From the IMG/VR virus record IMGVR_UViG_3300021373_000681, positions 1-26,220 of that record: DNA of 26,220 bases; one strand, given 5' to 3'. The translations under genes and the position numbers were made by a program. The DNA comes from a virus. This document shows, piece after piece, positions 1,510 to 4,393 of this stretch (positions are counted from its first letter, which is position 1; each line of letters opens with the position of its first letter). Under the pieces are notes generated by a model that did not search any database, was not told where the DNA came from, and was given only the letters and a program-made list of their open reading frames with translations.

Positions 1510-1713
1510 ATGAAACTTGAAAAATGGCGGTCAGAGAAGAATTTGACTTTGACACAATTGGCCGAGAAACTTGGTGCGCCGCATGCCACAGTTGTTCGGC
1601 GGTGGTGCTTACCTACGGATCACAAGGATTACAAGATCCCATCTGCTAAGTATATGTTAATTATACAAGAAACTACGATGGGCGCTGTGACGCCTAATGA
1701 TTTTTATGGATAA
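1510..1713 (+). CDS. Cro/CI-like helix-turn-helix regulator
   Basis: A 67-aa small DNA-binding protein. Residues about 10-33 (LTLTQLAEKLGAPHATVVRRW) form a typical HTH_3/Cro-type helix-turn-helix. The C-terminal GAVTPNDFYG resembles the ending of many phage Cro-like proteins. I chose ATG at 1510: AAGGAG (1498-1503) lies six bases upstream, whereas ATG 1507 would be too close. A TTG at 1483 is in frame but coincides with the putative operator. It is the first gene of the rightward accessory operon and sits directly behind a dyad, so autoregulation is likely. It probably also acts at the related site near 6650. Whether it behaves as Cro, CI or an activator cannot be told from sequence. Confidence 0.8.
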   Translation: MKLEKWRSEKNLTLTQLAEKLGAPHATVVRRWCLPTDHKDYKIPSAKYMLIIQETTMGAVTPNDFYG

Positions 1714-2464
1714 ATTACTGCGCCATGTTGATCTATGCTCAGGCATTGGCGGCTTTGCTCTTGGCTTTGAATGGGCAGGATTGAGCAGGCCAGTGATGTT
1801 TTGTGACATAGAAGAATGGAGTAGACAAATCGTGTCAAAGCATTGGCCTGACGTGCCAGTAGCTACGGACGTTAAGGAGTTAGCAAGTGACCCAGATAGA
1901 AATGTTCCCGACTGCGAAATTATCACGGCTGGCTATCCATGTCAGCCCTGGTCCGTCGCAGGTGAGCGCAAAGGATCGAGCGACAATCGCCACATCTGGC
2001 CGTACATCTGCGAAATTGTTGCACAAAAAAGACCCGCTTGGTGCGTTCTCGAAAATGTTTATGGGCACATCTCATTGGGGATCGACGAAGTGCTGTCTAA
2101 CTTGGAGTGCCAAGGCTACGCCGCAAGGGCGTTTGTTGTTCCAGCTTGCGGTGTCAATGCCCCGCACAGACGCGAACGAGTATTTATTGTGGCCCACACC
2201 GACAGCCCGAGATCACAAGGGCGGGTACAAGGGCGGCAGGATACGCAACGGGAAGGTAAGTTGGGACACTCTGGACGTAGCTGTTCAGTACACAGACAAC
2301 CAATCGAAAGATGGTGGGACACTGAACCCGAATTGGGTCGAGTGGCTCATGGGATACCCAATAGGACACACAGACTTAGAGGATTAGGAAACGCAATCGT
2401 TCCACAGATAGCGATGCGTATAGGGCAAACAATCAGAGCAGTAGAGGAACAAGATGGGCGGTAA
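1697..2464 (+). CDS. C5-cytosine DNA methyltransferase (Dcm family)
   Basis: A 255-aa protein with all key motifs of the family in order: motif I VDLCSGIGGF (11-20, AdoMet binding), motif IV GYPCQPWS with catalytic C82, motif VI ENV (119-121), motif VIII APHRRERVFIVA (155-166) and motif X RLRGLGNAIVPQ near 228-240. It methylates C5 of cytosine in DNA, probably to protect phage DNA from host restriction. The stretch between motif VIII and X (target recognition) is short, about 60 residues, so the enzyme is compact. The gene overlaps the end of the HTH gene; ATG 1697 and ATG 1706 are both possible and neither has a strong ribosome site. Its 3' end overlaps the nuclease gene at 2454. A large second frame inside it (1887-2387) is described separately. 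Confidence 0.93.
   Translation: MIFMDKLLRHVDLCSGIGGFALGFEWAGLSRPVMFCDIEEWSRQIVSKHWPDVPVATDVKELASDPDRNVPDCEIITAGYPCQPWSVAGERKGSSDNRHIWPYICEIVAQKRPAWCVLENVYGHISLGIDEVLSNLECQGYAARAFVVPACGVNAPHRRERVFIVAHTDSPRSQGRVQGRQDTQREGKLGHSGRSCSVHRQPIERWWDTEPELGRVAHGIPNRTHRLRGLGNAIVPQIAMRIGQTIRAVEEQDGR
1887..2387 (+). CDS. Overprinted ORF inside the methyltransferase gene (+1 frame), phage family of unknown function
   Basis: A 166-codon frame, +1 relative to the methyltransferase, lies wholly inside it, opposite methyltransferase residues 64-230. It starts at GTG 1887, or ATG 1902 (MFPTAK). Its product contains TWSAKATPQGRLLFQLAV, then PRTD, then LLWPTPTARDHKGG, and ends LNPNWVEWLMGYPIG-TDLED. From memory these are hallmarks of a widespread phage protein group found next to or over C5 methyltransferases. 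The same bases give the methyltransferase GRVAHG and RLRGLGNA motifs. I cannot tell whether this frame is translated, or whether the resemblance arises because such database proteins are themselves shifted readings of methyltransferase genes. No strong ribosome site precedes either start. Confidence 0.42.
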   Translation: MTQIEMFPTAKLSRLAIHVSPGPSQVSAKDRATIATSGRTSAKLLHKKDPLGAFSKMFMGTSHWGSTKCCLTWSAKATPQGRLLFQLAVSMPRTDANEYLLWPTPTARDHKGGYKGGRIRNGKVSWDTLDVAVQYTDNQSKDGGTLNPNWVEWLMGYPIGHTDLED

Positions 2465-2792
2465 AGCAGCTAGAGACAAGGGCGCTAACTTTGAGCGCGA
2501 GATAGTAAACTGGCATAGAGAGCGTGGGGTAGAGGCCGAGCGTGTACCTTTGTCGGGCGCAGCCAAAGGCAACTACAAGGGTGATCTAAAGATAGGGCCA
2601 GAGCAGGCATTGCTTGCTGAGTGCAAGCGTAGAGCTAGAGCGTATCAGGATCTGTATGACGCGCTAGATCAGGATGACAGTGACATGTTGTTCATCCGAA
2701 AAGACCGTGGGCGCACATTGGTTGTGTTGCCGATTGAAACTTACGAAGCAATATTGGAGTGGATCGGATGGAAGAAATACCCGAAGAAATAA
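2454..2792 (+). CDS. Hjc-like PD-(D/E)XK nuclease, probable Holliday-junction/branch resolvase
   Basis: This 112-aa protein has the small archaeal-Hjc/phage nuclease arrangement: GANFEREIVNWHRERG with E14/E16, then AERVPLSGAAKGNYKGDL with D44, then AECKRR with E56 and K58. Together these form the E-D-ExK metal site. Such enzymes cut branched DNA; here it would clear recombination or replication junctions before packaging. The start ATG 2454 lies inside the methyltransferase end, indicating coupled translation. It belongs to the same operon as the methyltransferase and complements the exonuclease/annealing pair across the divergent promoter. A general VRR-like or very-short-patch-type nuclease is an alternative. 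Confidence 0.72.
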   Translation: MGGKAARDKGANFEREIVNWHRERGVEAERVPLSGAAKGNYKGDLKIGPEQALLAECKRRARAYQDLYDALDQDDSDMLFIRKDRGRTLVVLPIETYEAILEWIGWKKYPKK

Positions 2793-2947
2793 AAGAGATT
2801 TTGCGCAAGCAGGGCATTGAACCTGATTGGGACAAGTTTGAGGAAGAGTTTACCAAATTCTTTTTGCCAGCTTGGCTTGGTACGACTGACGAGCAAGAAA
2901 TACAAAAAGCTTACGATGATCTGAAAGCGCGGAAGAGCGATGACTGA
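2768..2947 (+). CDS. Small acidic protein, unknown
   Basis: A 59-aa product, rich in Glu, Asp and Lys, predicted mostly helical (EEIPEEIKEILRKQG, then DKFEEEFTKFFLP). I do not recognise it. ATG 2768 is chosen because GGAG at 2756-2759 is eight bases upstream; an earlier in-frame GTG at 2759 lies within that site. It overlaps the end of the nuclease gene by 25 bases and the start of the next gene by 8. This is the tight packing expected of a genuine phage early-operon gene. No motif suggests a catalytic role; a protein-binding or inhibitor role would be guesswork. Confidence 0.6.
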   Translation: MEEIPEEIKEILRKQGIEPDWDKFEEEFTKFFLPAWLGTTDEQEIQKAYDDLKARKSDD

Positions 2948-3134
2948 CTACCCAGGTAAGCTATCAGACAAAGACCGTGTGTTTCAGTTGCTGAATGTGA
3001 TGAACATGTCGTTCACTTCTGAGGAGGTGGCAGAGCTAATCGCAATACCGAATGACATAGTGTTGCGCAGCTTGTTAGAATTAAAAGCAAAGAAAAAAGT
3101 ATCAGTGAGTTATGGAAAGTGGAGAACAGTATGA
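2940..3134 (+). CDS. Small winged-helix-like protein, unknown
   Basis: A 64-aa product. Residues about 9-58 (DRVFQLLNVMNMSFTSEEVA, then IPNDIVLRSLLELKAKKKVSVSYGKWRTV) read like a small winged helix: a first helix, an HTH-like pair at EEVAELIAIPNDIVLRSLLEL, and a beta wing at VSVSYGKWRTV. This suggests DNA or RNA binding, but I cannot name a family. ATG 2940 overlaps the preceding stop, with GGAAGAG upstream. The stop overlaps the next start as ATGA. The role is unknown. Confidence 0.6.
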   Translation: MTDYPGKLSDKDRVFQLLNVMNMSFTSEEVAELIAIPNDIVLRSLLELKAKKKVSVSYGKWRTV

Positions 3135-3343
3135 ATGAGCAACTTTCGTTTAGTGTGCGTGAAGTTATGAAGATTAGGTCTTGCCTGTGGCATGCAAGAT
3201 GCGTGTGGGAGGAGAGGCCTACGATTGTTCCTGATTGGGCAAAAGATGAAATCAAACAGATTGATAAACTTGACGCAAAAGTAGTGAAGTTTTTAAACAA
3301 TCTTGGATACAACTACCCATCATTTAAGGAATTAGATCAATGA
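3131..3343 (+). CDS. Small hypothetical protein
   Basis: A 70-aa product of unknown function, with a helical N-terminal half containing two cysteines (SCLWHARCVWEERP) and a helical Lys/Asp-rich second half ending FLNNLGYNYPSFKELDQ. ATG 3131 is preferred because GGAG (3121-3124) is six bases upstream and the start overlaps the previous stop as ATGA. An upstream in-frame GTG at 3119 lacks such support. The stop again overlaps the next start as ATGA. Being locked between two coupled genes argues that it is real. No fold is recognised. Confidence 0.6.
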   Translation: MNEQLSFSVREVMKIRSCLWHARCVWEERPTIVPDWAKDEIKQIDKLDAKVVKFLNNLGYNYPSFKELDQ

Positions 3344-3576
3344 AGTTTCATGGATTAGAGGTTACAGGTGGAACGGCGCGCTTTGTGTTTTACGGTTCTG
3401 ATGGGCGCAAGTTTGTGGAGCCTGCGATGGTCTGCAAGGAGTGTACTGGCGAGGGCGAGTACTTGGGTGAGGAGCCTGTGGTAGACTACGAACACGGCGG
3501 GTACCTGAAAGAGGTGAAGGTGACGTGTCAGACATGCGAGGGCTATGGATGGGTGGTGCAGGATGATGAGGAGTGA
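3340..3576 (+). CDS. Small zinc-finger protein with two DnaJ-type CxxCxGxG motifs
   Basis: A 78-aa protein with CKECTGEGEY near residues 32-41 and CQTCEGYGWV near 63-72, both of the CxxCxGxG type that binds zinc in DnaJ. One pair of motifs would hold one zinc between them in a beta hairpin. No J-domain is present, so this is not a co-chaperone. Phages often carry such stand-alone fingers and their roles are mostly unknown. It starts at ATG 3340, overlapping the preceding stop, and its end overlaps the following PP-loop gene. That neighbour is also cysteine-rich, so a joint metal- or sulfur-handling role is possible but speculative. Confidence 0.65.
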   Translation: MKFHGLEVTGGTARFVFYGSDGRKFVEPAMVCKECTGEGEYLGEEPVVDYEHGGYLKEVKVTCQTCEGYGWVVQDDEE

Positions 3577-4393
3577 GCCATACAAGCTTCCAGAGGGCAA
3601 CACACTTATTAGTGTAAGCGGAGGGCGCACAAGCGCCTACATGCTGTACGAAATACTATGCGAGTATGATGGTGAATTACCTGCAAACTGTGAGGTTTTG
3701 TTTGCAAATACTGGCAGGGAAATGCCTGGAACATTGGACTTTGTGCGCGATTTGGAAACGCATTGGGGTGTACCGATTACGTGGTTAGAGTATGACCGCG
3801 CTCCAAGCGCAAAGAGAAAGAACGGTACCGCTGCGTTCAAGGTCGTTGATTGGGATACTGCCGCGAGAAACGGTGAGCCGTTTGACAAGTACCTATCGTT
3901 CAACATGCTACCGAATGTGTTTCGTCGGGCATGTACGCAAGAGCTAAAGGTCAAGACGATGCGCAGATATTTGCTGTCTCTTGGCTGGAAGCATTGGAAC
4001 AACTTAGTTGGCATACGCGCAGATGAAGGGCGCAGGATTAAGGCAAGCAAAGATAAGCGAACAGTTAATGTATTTCCTTTGGCAGATGCGGGCGTGACAA
4101 AGCAAGATGTTATGCAGTTCTGGAGGGGCAAGTCATACGATCTAAAGATTGCGCCTGGATCAGGTAACTGTGACGGGTGTTTCTTGAAGTCTGAGGCTAC
4201 GTTGGCTGCGATGTGGCGTGAGTACCCAGATCGAATGGAATGGTGGGCGAATTGGGAAAGCAAGAAGTCCAACACGTTTCACGACATCAGAACATATCGA
4301 GAGCTTGGCGAGTTCGTTGACAGACAAGGCGATTGGATATTCGATGATGAGGCGTTCCTTTGTCAGGCAGATGACGGGGAATGCACGGGATGA
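3566..4393 (+). CDS. PAPS-reductase-like PP-loop ATP pyrophosphatase
   Basis: A 275-aa member of the phosphoadenosine-phosphosulfate reductase family. The PP-loop ISVSGGRTSAYML is at residues 15-27, followed by LFANTGREMPGTLDFVRD, the family strand-loop, and later IRADEGRR. Such proteins adenylate a substrate with ATP. The phage branch is usually annotated as PAPS reductase, but its true substrate is uncertain. Conserved cysteines stand out: RRACTQELK in the middle, NCDGCFLK near residue 202, and two more in the last ten residues. They are arranged as in enzymes that use an Fe-S or zinc site for sulfur transfer. ATGs at 3545, 3563 and 3566 are in frame; I take 3566 for family length, with low certainty. 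Possible roles include nucleic-acid thiolation or sulfur scavenging. Confidence 0.8.
   Translation: MRSEPYKLPEGNTLISVSGGRTSAYMLYEILCEYDGELPANCEVLFANTGREMPGTLDFVRDLETHWGVPITWLEYDRAPSAKRKNGTAAFKVVDWDTAARNGEPFDKYLSFNMLPNVFRRACTQELKVKTMRRYLLSLGWKHWNNLVGIRADEGRRIKASKDKRTVNVFPLADAGVTKQDVMQFWRGKSYDLKIAPGSGNCDGCFLKSEATLAAMWREYPDRMEWWANWESKKSNTFHDIRTYRELGEFVDRQGDWIFDDEAFLCQADDGECTG

What the first reader, a model, noticed from the sequence alone, without database searches (positions are those of the whole stretch)
1887..2387. A second, conserved-looking protein is encoded inside the methyltransferase gene
Seen: a 166-codon frame, +1 to a complete C5 methyltransferase, runs without a stop over methyltransferase residues 64-230. 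Its product carries TWSAKATPQGRLLFQLAV, LLWPTPTARDHKGG and LNPNWVEWLMGYPIG, which I recall as signatures of a common phage protein group of unknown role found beside C5 methyltransferases. The same bases give the methyltransferase motifs ENV, RRERVF, GRVAHG and RLRGLGNA, so both frames look constrained. Inference: either a true overprinted gene (perhaps a partner or a decoy of the enzyme), or a whole family in databases that arose by reading methyltransferase genes one base off. Either outcome would be worth knowing.
Basis: partly seen in the sequence, partly recalled or inferred. Interest (0 to 1): 0.82.

Follow-up and report, generated by a model that had tools for sequence, protein, structure and literature searches.

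The report
DNA-reading subunit hidden inside methyltransferase gene
Inside this viral DNA-methyltransferase gene a second protein is encoded one base out of step, and comparison with relatives indicates that it is the enzyme's own missing DNA-recognition half, so that one stretch of DNA codes for both subunits, an arrangement found in phages and in bacteria of many phyla.

Summary
The frame is real (1887-2387, +1 to the C5 methyltransferase), conserved and very probably translated. Of 80 relatives chosen only by methyltransferase residues 1-63, outside the overlap, 79 keep the +1 frame open across it (up to 494 codons). In a region set by methyltransferase motifs, 36 genes show 0 stops against 163 expected; ordinary C5 methyltransferases show 136 against 133. 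Over the target-recognition (TRD) and motif IX region the fastest codon position is frame b's wobble base; motif IX is missing from the methyltransferase frame, while frame b ends in an IX-like segment after one or more WPTPxAxD modules. In 36 actinophage loci both halves lie in one frame. Codon choice preserves a Shine-Dalgarno site and start for b. Best explanation: frame b is the specificity (beta) subunit of a two-subunit C5 methyltransferase: alpha supplies I-VIII and X, beta the TRD(s) and IX. This is the M.EcoHK31I kind, here widespread in phages and prophages and often with tandem TRDs. The 'database artefact' reading is rejected.

The parts
1709..2464 (+). alpha: C5 cytosine methyltransferase ORF (ATG 1709, overlapping the TAA of the upstream ORF; alternative ATG 1697). 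Holds motifs I-VIII and X; no motif IX in this frame
   Evidence: Pfam DNA_methylase E 2.3e-35, matching only profile 2-164 of 324; AF2 model confident in the core (block means 93-98 for residues 1-70, 90-97 for 91-150), below 50 for residues 176-204, 95-96 over 231-250; aligns to M.HhaI at Z 24.7, rmsd 2.5, 209 residues
1874..1879 (+). Shine-Dalgarno AAGGAG, 7 nt before the GTG of frame b
   Evidence: read in sequence; in 42 relatives with a VKE-like motif the Lys codon is AAG in 42/42 (background 0.45) and the Glu codon GAG in 30/42 (background 0.33)
1887..2387 (+). beta: frame-b protein, 166 aa, GTG start, +1 to alpha and nested in it
   Evidence: phrog_1008 E 2.7e-27; 79/80 unbiased relatives keep the frame open; 0 stops against 163 expected
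1887..2189 (+). beta N-terminal part, sharing its DNA with alpha motifs IV-VIII; alpha is the primary frame here
   Evidence: mismatch ratio a3/mean(a1,a2) 1.76, against 2.70 and 2.93 in alpha-only parts; a b-similarity test was not specific here
2190..2321 (+). TRD-like module of beta (WPTPTARDHKGGYKGGRIRNGKVSWDTLDVAVQYTDNQSKDGG); in alpha the same DNA gives low-confidence hydrophilic filler
   Evidence: tandem modules, 1 to 9 per protein in relatives; frame-b wobble base is the fastest position here; a-frame stops given b: 1 seen against 436.6 expected
2322..2378 (+). motif IX-like segment of beta, LNPNWVEWLMGYPIGHTDL
   Evidence: profile-profile: the best alignment of b to ordinary C5 methyltransferases falls on their motif IX (RRLTPKECQKLQGFPDWF), E 0.024; b similarity with alpha fixed, median z 5.9
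2372..2413 (+). motif X of alpha, RLRGLGNAIVPQIA, back in the methyltransferase frame
   Evidence: AF2 helices 220-228 and 232-248

Best explanation
The locus encodes a two-subunit C5-cytosine DNA methyltransferase with both subunits in one stretch of DNA. The methyltransferase frame makes alpha: SAM binding and catalysis (motifs I-VIII) and motif X, with a disordered filler where TRD and motif IX should be. The +1 frame makes beta from its own ribosome-binding site and GTG: a 100-residue N-terminal part overprinted on motifs IV-VIII, then a target-recognition module, then motif IX. Alpha and beta would assemble so that beta forms the small, major-groove DNA-reading lobe and alpha the catalytic lobe. 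In relatives beta carries up to 9 modules, which would give one enzyme several target sequences, useful to a phage for escaping several restriction enzymes. Shown here: both frames, their conservation, the missing IX in alpha, module arrays, start signals, single-frame relatives. Inferred: translation, assembly, DNA recognition by the modules, biological role.
For: Unbiased set: 79/80 keep +1 open across the overlap while stops are dense just outside it; 0 against 163.0 expected, ordinary enzymes 136 against 132.9. Among 60 C5 methyltransferase ORFs in 20 bacterial genomes, those carrying b at full strength show no motif IX in the methyltransferase frame and 0-4 stops at +1; those with IX in frame have 8-37 stops and no b, apart from one 33-bit partial match. 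Codon-position signal flips by region: a3/mean(a1,a2) = 2.70 (N), 1.76 (IV-VIII), 1.00 (TRD), 0.85 (IX), 2.93 (C) (same trend). Alpha is kept open through TRD/IX: 1 stop against 436.6 expected given b, as needed to reach motif X. Single-frame relatives: 36 actinophage loci; in the six printed, I-VIII (153-175 bits), b-type modules plus IX (31-41 bits) and X share one ORF; 33 more are split at +1. Murai gp6/gp5 and L237 are natural alpha(I-VIII)/beta(TRD-IX-X) pairs. Start signals held by codon choice: AAG 42/42, Asn AAT 31/31 (background 0.46), Ser AGT 9/10 (background 0.19). AF2 finds no fold in alpha 176-204. Precedent: M.EcoHK31I has I-VIII and X in the large subunit and IX in the small one (PMC3404938).
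Against: No peptide, ribosome-profiling or activity data. AF2 of beta alone is weak (pLDDT 60, pTM 0.29) with no PDB match, so a TRD fold is not shown. Motif IX homology by profile alone is weak (E 0.024 for a 23-residue match). In the IV-VIII part the test for b similarity was hardly better than its control frame. The start signal analysed covers 42 of 93 representatives; deep lineages start elsewhere. Sequences are phylogenetically related, so counts are not independent.
Confidence: 0.86

Rival explanations
1. Frame b is a real, translated protein but a separate partner (regulator, anti-restriction factor or decoy) that merely grew inside the methyltransferase gene.
For: It has its own start signals and a 100-residue N-terminal part unlike any methyltransferase segment; no Pfam match.
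Against: Does not explain why alpha lacks motif IX exactly where b ends in an IX-like segment, nor why the catalytic core, b-type modules and IX are joined in one frame in actinophages.
Confidence: 0.08
2. One polypeptide is made by programmed +1 frameshifting from alpha into beta.
For: Natural in-frame fusions of the alpha N-terminus to b exist (L139, L229).
Against: Motif X stays in the alpha frame in the window type, so such a product would lack X; alpha is kept open through TRD/IX; b has its own conserved RBS and start; the two fusions may be deletions or assembly errors.
Confidence: 0.05
3. Artefact: the +1 frame is open and alike only because the methyltransferase below it is conserved, and the database family is a misreading.
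For: Over motifs IV-VIII part of the b resemblance is of this kind.
Against: 0 stops against 163 expected; frame b is the better-conserved frame over TRD/IX; RBS and start preserved; single-frame relatives.
Confidence: 0.01

Closest known systems
M.EcoHK31I (two-subunit C5 methyltransferase, YGGCCR; Lee, Kam and Shaw 1995, as cited in PMC3404938)
   Same: Large subunit with motifs I-VIII and X, small polypeptide with motif IX; from memory, its small ORF is also nested in the large one in another frame
   Different: The published account puts the predicted TRD in the large subunit; here TRD modules are conserved in the small, +1 frame. Here the small subunit often has several modules.
M.AquI (two-subunit C5 methyltransferase)
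   Same: Split of I-VIII from the distal half of the enzyme (PMC3404938); Murai gp6/gp5 and L237 look like this type
   Different: The AquI small subunit holds IX and X; in the window X is in alpha
Multispecific Bacillus phage C5 methyltransferases (SPbeta, phi3T; Trautner et al.)
   Same: Tandem target-recognition modules between motifs VIII and IX (recalled; multi-TRD Bacillus phage enzymes mentioned in PMC8936443)
   Different: Single-frame, single-chain enzymes; here modules sit in the +1 frame on a second subunit; the window has one module only
phrog_1008 ('DNA methyltransferase') and 'g55 internal gene' / 'Mte8-like' annotations
   Same: The frame-b product itself, listed in some phage annotations
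   Different: No role assigned in these records beyond the methyltransferase label
ShiLan out-of-frame HNH insertion in a phage methylase (PMC11855218)
   Same: Second protein in another frame of a phage methylase gene
   Different: A mobile HNH insertion; frame b here covers the enzyme's own conserved region and carries no HNH match

Membership tests
C5 cytosine methyltransferase (PF00145), alpha frame | motifs I-VIII including PCQ and ENV | tested here: met
   PF00145 profile 2-164, E 2.3e-35; M.HhaI Z 24.7
C5 cytosine methyltransferase (PF00145), alpha frame | motif X | tested here: met
   RLRGLGNAIVPQIA, with near-invariant residues in relatives; helices in the HhaI-like model
C5 cytosine methyltransferase (PF00145), alpha frame | TRD and motif IX in the same chain | tested here: not met
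   Pfam match stops at 164/324; no IX pattern in b-type genes; residues 176-204 pLDDT below 50
M.EcoHK31I-type two-subunit methyltransferase | large subunit with I-VIII and X but no IX | tested here: met
   definition from PMC3404938
M.EcoHK31I-type two-subunit methyltransferase | motif IX on a separate small polypeptide | tested here: met
   LNPNWVEWLMGYP in frame b aligns to motif IX (E 0.024); single-frame relatives place it between TRD and X
M.EcoHK31I-type two-subunit methyltransferase | small ORF nested out of frame in the large ORF (recalled) | tested here: met
   window 1887-2387 inside 1709-2464, +1
M.EcoHK31I-type two-subunit methyltransferase | both polypeptides needed for methylation | not testable with these tools
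   needs expression and assay
M.EcoHK31I-type two-subunit methyltransferase | sequence relation of beta to EcoHK31I beta | not tested
   EcoHK31I sequence not at hand; original paper not held
M.AquI-type two-subunit methyltransferase | IX and X both on the small subunit | tested here: not met
   X is in alpha in the window; met in Murai gp5 and L237
Multispecific C5 methyltransferase | several tandem TRDs | tested here: not met
   one module in the window; by a loose pattern 86 of 96 sequences show 2 to 6 and one shows 9
ShiLan-type hidden HNH insertion | HNH endonuclease in the alternative frame | tested here: not met
   no Pfam or NCBIfam match for b; b lies on conserved methyltransferase DNA, not on an insertion

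The most novel reading that the evidence does not exclude
A large, old and mostly unrecognised class of phage and prophage C5 methyltransferases stores its catalytic and specificity subunits in two frames of the same DNA: each subunit carries a part overprinted on the other, TRD cassettes are exchanged as DNA blocks that must stay open in both frames, and enzymes with several target sequences arise by adding such blocks.
Probability: 0.6. Interest if true: 0.85.

Novelty: new variant of a known kind. Interest (0 to 1): 0.74.

Why it matters
Many genes annotated as complete 'DNA cytosine methyltransferase' in phages and prophages would be only half an enzyme as annotated; expressing the annotated ORF from a recoded synthetic gene would destroy the hidden specificity subunit and look inactive. 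Target prediction from the methyltransferase frame would read filler instead of the TRD. It also gives an unusually large set of long same-strand gene overlaps (up to 494 codons, at least nine bacterial phyla by record title) in which the dominant frame switches along the gene, and a system in which specificity modules are added under a two-frame constraint.

Tried and rejected
Similarity of b over motifs IV-VIII with alpha held fixed: median z 2.83, but the +2 control frame gave 2.57, so shared descent explains most of it and it is not used as evidence. The codon-shuffle test on ORF-defined intervals is biased by construction and was replaced by motif-defined intervals. Fold search with the beta model: no match in the PDB, four weak viral matches, two of them named methyltransferases; the model is too poor to judge. 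Profile search of b against PDB chains: nothing of note. Stand-alone b genes away from a methyltransferase: none among the 80 bacterial loci; the closest are Murai gp5-like genes, which follow a truncated methyltransferase. Plasmid search with b: 11 records, mostly annotated as methyltransferases, not followed further. Literature: nine searches found no held paper describing this overlap across phages; absence is not proof. Programmed frameshift and database artefact were considered and ranked low. Direction of evolution between single-frame and two-frame forms is not settled: single-frame actinophage genes still carry filler-like stretches after motif VIII and may be secondary fusions.

Full report
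Observation. The window holds a C5 methyltransferase ORF (1697-2464; ATG 1709 overlaps the stop codon of the upstream ORF) and, at +1, a 166-codon frame b from GTG 1887 to TAG 2387. AAGGAG stands 7 nt before the GTG. Frame b matches phrog_1008 (E 2.7e-27) and no Pfam or NCBIfam family. The methyltransferase frame matches Pfam DNA_methylase only over profile positions 2-164 of 324.

Is it more than chance? To avoid choosing relatives by frame b, I fetched 80 viral loci with methyltransferase residues 1-63 only, which lie outside the overlap. In 79 of 80 the +1 frame is free of stops across the overlap, up to 494 codons in L152, with stops dense just before and after it and many stops in the +2 frame. 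The exception, L139, has a deletion that joins the alpha N-terminus in frame to b; the rest of the methyltransferase frame is still open there. With each protein and codon set held fixed and the interval defined by methyltransferase motifs, 36 non-redundant genes show 0 stops at +1 against 163.0 expected, and 317 against 455.2 at +2. Ten ordinary C5 methyltransferases with motif IX in frame show 136 against 132.9 at +1.

Which frame is under selection where? In codon-aligned pairs of moderately diverged genes, the mismatch ratio of methyltransferase codon position 3 to the mean of positions 1 and 2 is 2.70 before the overlap, 1.76 over motifs IV-VIII, 1.00 in the TRD region, 0.85 in the LNPxWVEWLMG segment and 2.93 after the overlap (one search gives the same trend on BLAST alignments). 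Frame b's wobble base is methyltransferase position 1, and that is the fastest position in the TRD and LNPxWVEWLMG segments. So the methyltransferase frame dominates over IV-VIII and frame b over TRD/IX. The methyltransferase frame is nevertheless kept open there: given the b protein, 1 stop was seen against 436.6 expected.

What frame b is. Ordinary C5 methyltransferases have the order I-VIII, TRD, IX, X. In b-type genes IX is missing from the methyltransferase frame while X is present. In 20 bacterial genomes 60 C5 methyltransferase ORFs were examined: those with a recognisable IX in frame have 8 to 37 stops at +1 and no frame-b match, apart from one 33-bit partial match (L254); those with a full-strength frame-b match have no IX in frame and 0 to 4 stops; a remainder of divergent ORFs showed neither by the simple pattern used. 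Frame b ends in LNPNWVEWLMGYPIGHTDL; in a profile-profile comparison with ordinary methyltransferases its best match is motif IX (RRLTPKECQKLQGFPDWF, E 0.024). On its own this is weak. The strong bridge is in actinophages: using Murai gp5 (TRD, IX, X) as query, 36 of 79 loci hold the catalytic core and this C-terminal part in a single frame, and 33 have them split at +1. In the six single-frame proteins printed (L320-L323, L326, L327) the order is I-VIII (153-175 bits to the alpha profile), LLPTPxAxD modules plus a segment such as LSAAFSEWLMGWPEGWVTD (31-41 bits to the b profile, positions about 100-210) and then X. L237 and Murai gp6/gp5 are natural pairs in which alpha ends after VIII and beta carries TRD, IX and X; L237 has ten stops in the methyltransferase frame from the end of VIII on.

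Start signals. Many relatives start b at the same place. In 42 with a VKE-like motif, Lys is AAG in 42 of 42 (background 0.45) and Glu GAG in 30 of 42 (0.33), making the Shine-Dalgarno sequence; the residue whose codon creates the start is Asn AAT in 31 of 31 (0.46) or Ser AGT in 9 of 10 (0.19). These genes are related, so P values overstate independence. Deep lineages start elsewhere.

Structure. AF2 of alpha is confident except mainly for residues 176-204, the stretch over TRD/IX, and aligns with M.HhaI at Z 24.7. AF2 of beta alone is poor and finds nothing in the PDB, so no fold is claimed for it. A complex could not be modelled here.

Modules. Beta contains tandem segments that begin WPTPxAxD; a loose pattern counts 1 to 9 per protein in 96 sequences, most often 2 or 3, one in the window. 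The window module plus IX segment is 78-80% identical to those of L013, L022 and L026, whose methyltransferases are only 34-40% identical to the window's over their length. That pattern suggests cassette exchange. In L152 a two-module unit is repeated. Multispecificity is an inference from known multi-TRD Bacillus phage enzymes.

Spread. The same nested arrangement was found in nearly all of 80 bacterial loci chosen by frame b (L237 being AquI-like and L229 partly fused), from Bacillota, Pseudomonadota, Bacteroidota, Acidobacteriota, Chloroflexota and others by record title, and in phages C72C1, Shelly, R9.1, K1H, N15 and eiAU. These loci were chosen by similarity to b, so they show breadth, not frequency. 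Some annotators noted the inner ORF: 'g55 internal gene' in Paenibacillus phage Shelly, 'Mte8-like protein' in K1H; C72C1 lists only the methyltransferase.

Known precedent. M.EcoHK31I has I-VIII and X in its large subunit and IX in its small one, and M.AquI splits I-VIII from IX-X (PMC3404938). From memory, the EcoHK31I small ORF is nested out of frame in the large one. The window fits that kind. It differs from the published description of EcoHK31I, which places the predicted TRD in the large subunit; here the conservation lies in the small, +1 frame. I could not obtain the EcoHK31I sequence. ShiLan-type hidden HNH elements (PMC11855218) are a different thing.

Verdict. A real overprinted gene, most likely the specificity subunit of the methyltransferase that contains it. 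The mechanism is a strong homology inference, not a measured activity. What appears new is the breadth of the arrangement, the placement of TRD arrays in the hidden frame, and the switch of the dominant frame along the gene; a search of the held library found no account of these, which does not exclude one elsewhere.

Noticed in passing
L139 (MTase N-terminus fused to b), L229 4355-5365: Natural in-frame joins of the alpha N-terminus with b; deletion, frameshift or assembly error cannot be told apart.
   Followed up: partly
L237 4742-6041: Bacillota locus with alpha ending after motif VIII (ten stops follow) and beta carrying about five module-like segments, IX and X: an AquI-like arrangement.
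   Followed up: yes
L250 (Mycobacterium phage Murai) 2023-2974: Two adjacent 'DNA methylase' genes, gp6 with I-VIII and gp5 with TRD, IX and X, overlapping by 23 bases.
   Followed up: yes
L013, L022, L026 against window 2190-2378: Module plus IX segment 78-80% identical in b while the methyltransferases are 34-40% identical overall: looks like exchange of TRD cassettes.
   Followed up: partly
L152 frame b: A two-module unit is repeated in tandem within a 493-codon b frame; the contig has ambiguous bases there.
   Followed up: no
L320-L327 after motif VIII: Single-frame actinophage methyltransferases keep a filler-like hydrophilic stretch (e.g. VAHASSAAIGEPAGG...) before the LLPTP modules, hinting that they may be secondary fusions.
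   Followed up: no
window 2454-4393 and 1507-1713: Neighbours: RusA-like resolvase (2454-2792), phosphoadenosine phosphosulfate reductase (3545-4393) and a small repressor-like protein (1507-1713); phage C72C1 also has a repressor and a reductase flanking its methyltransferase.
   Followed up: partly
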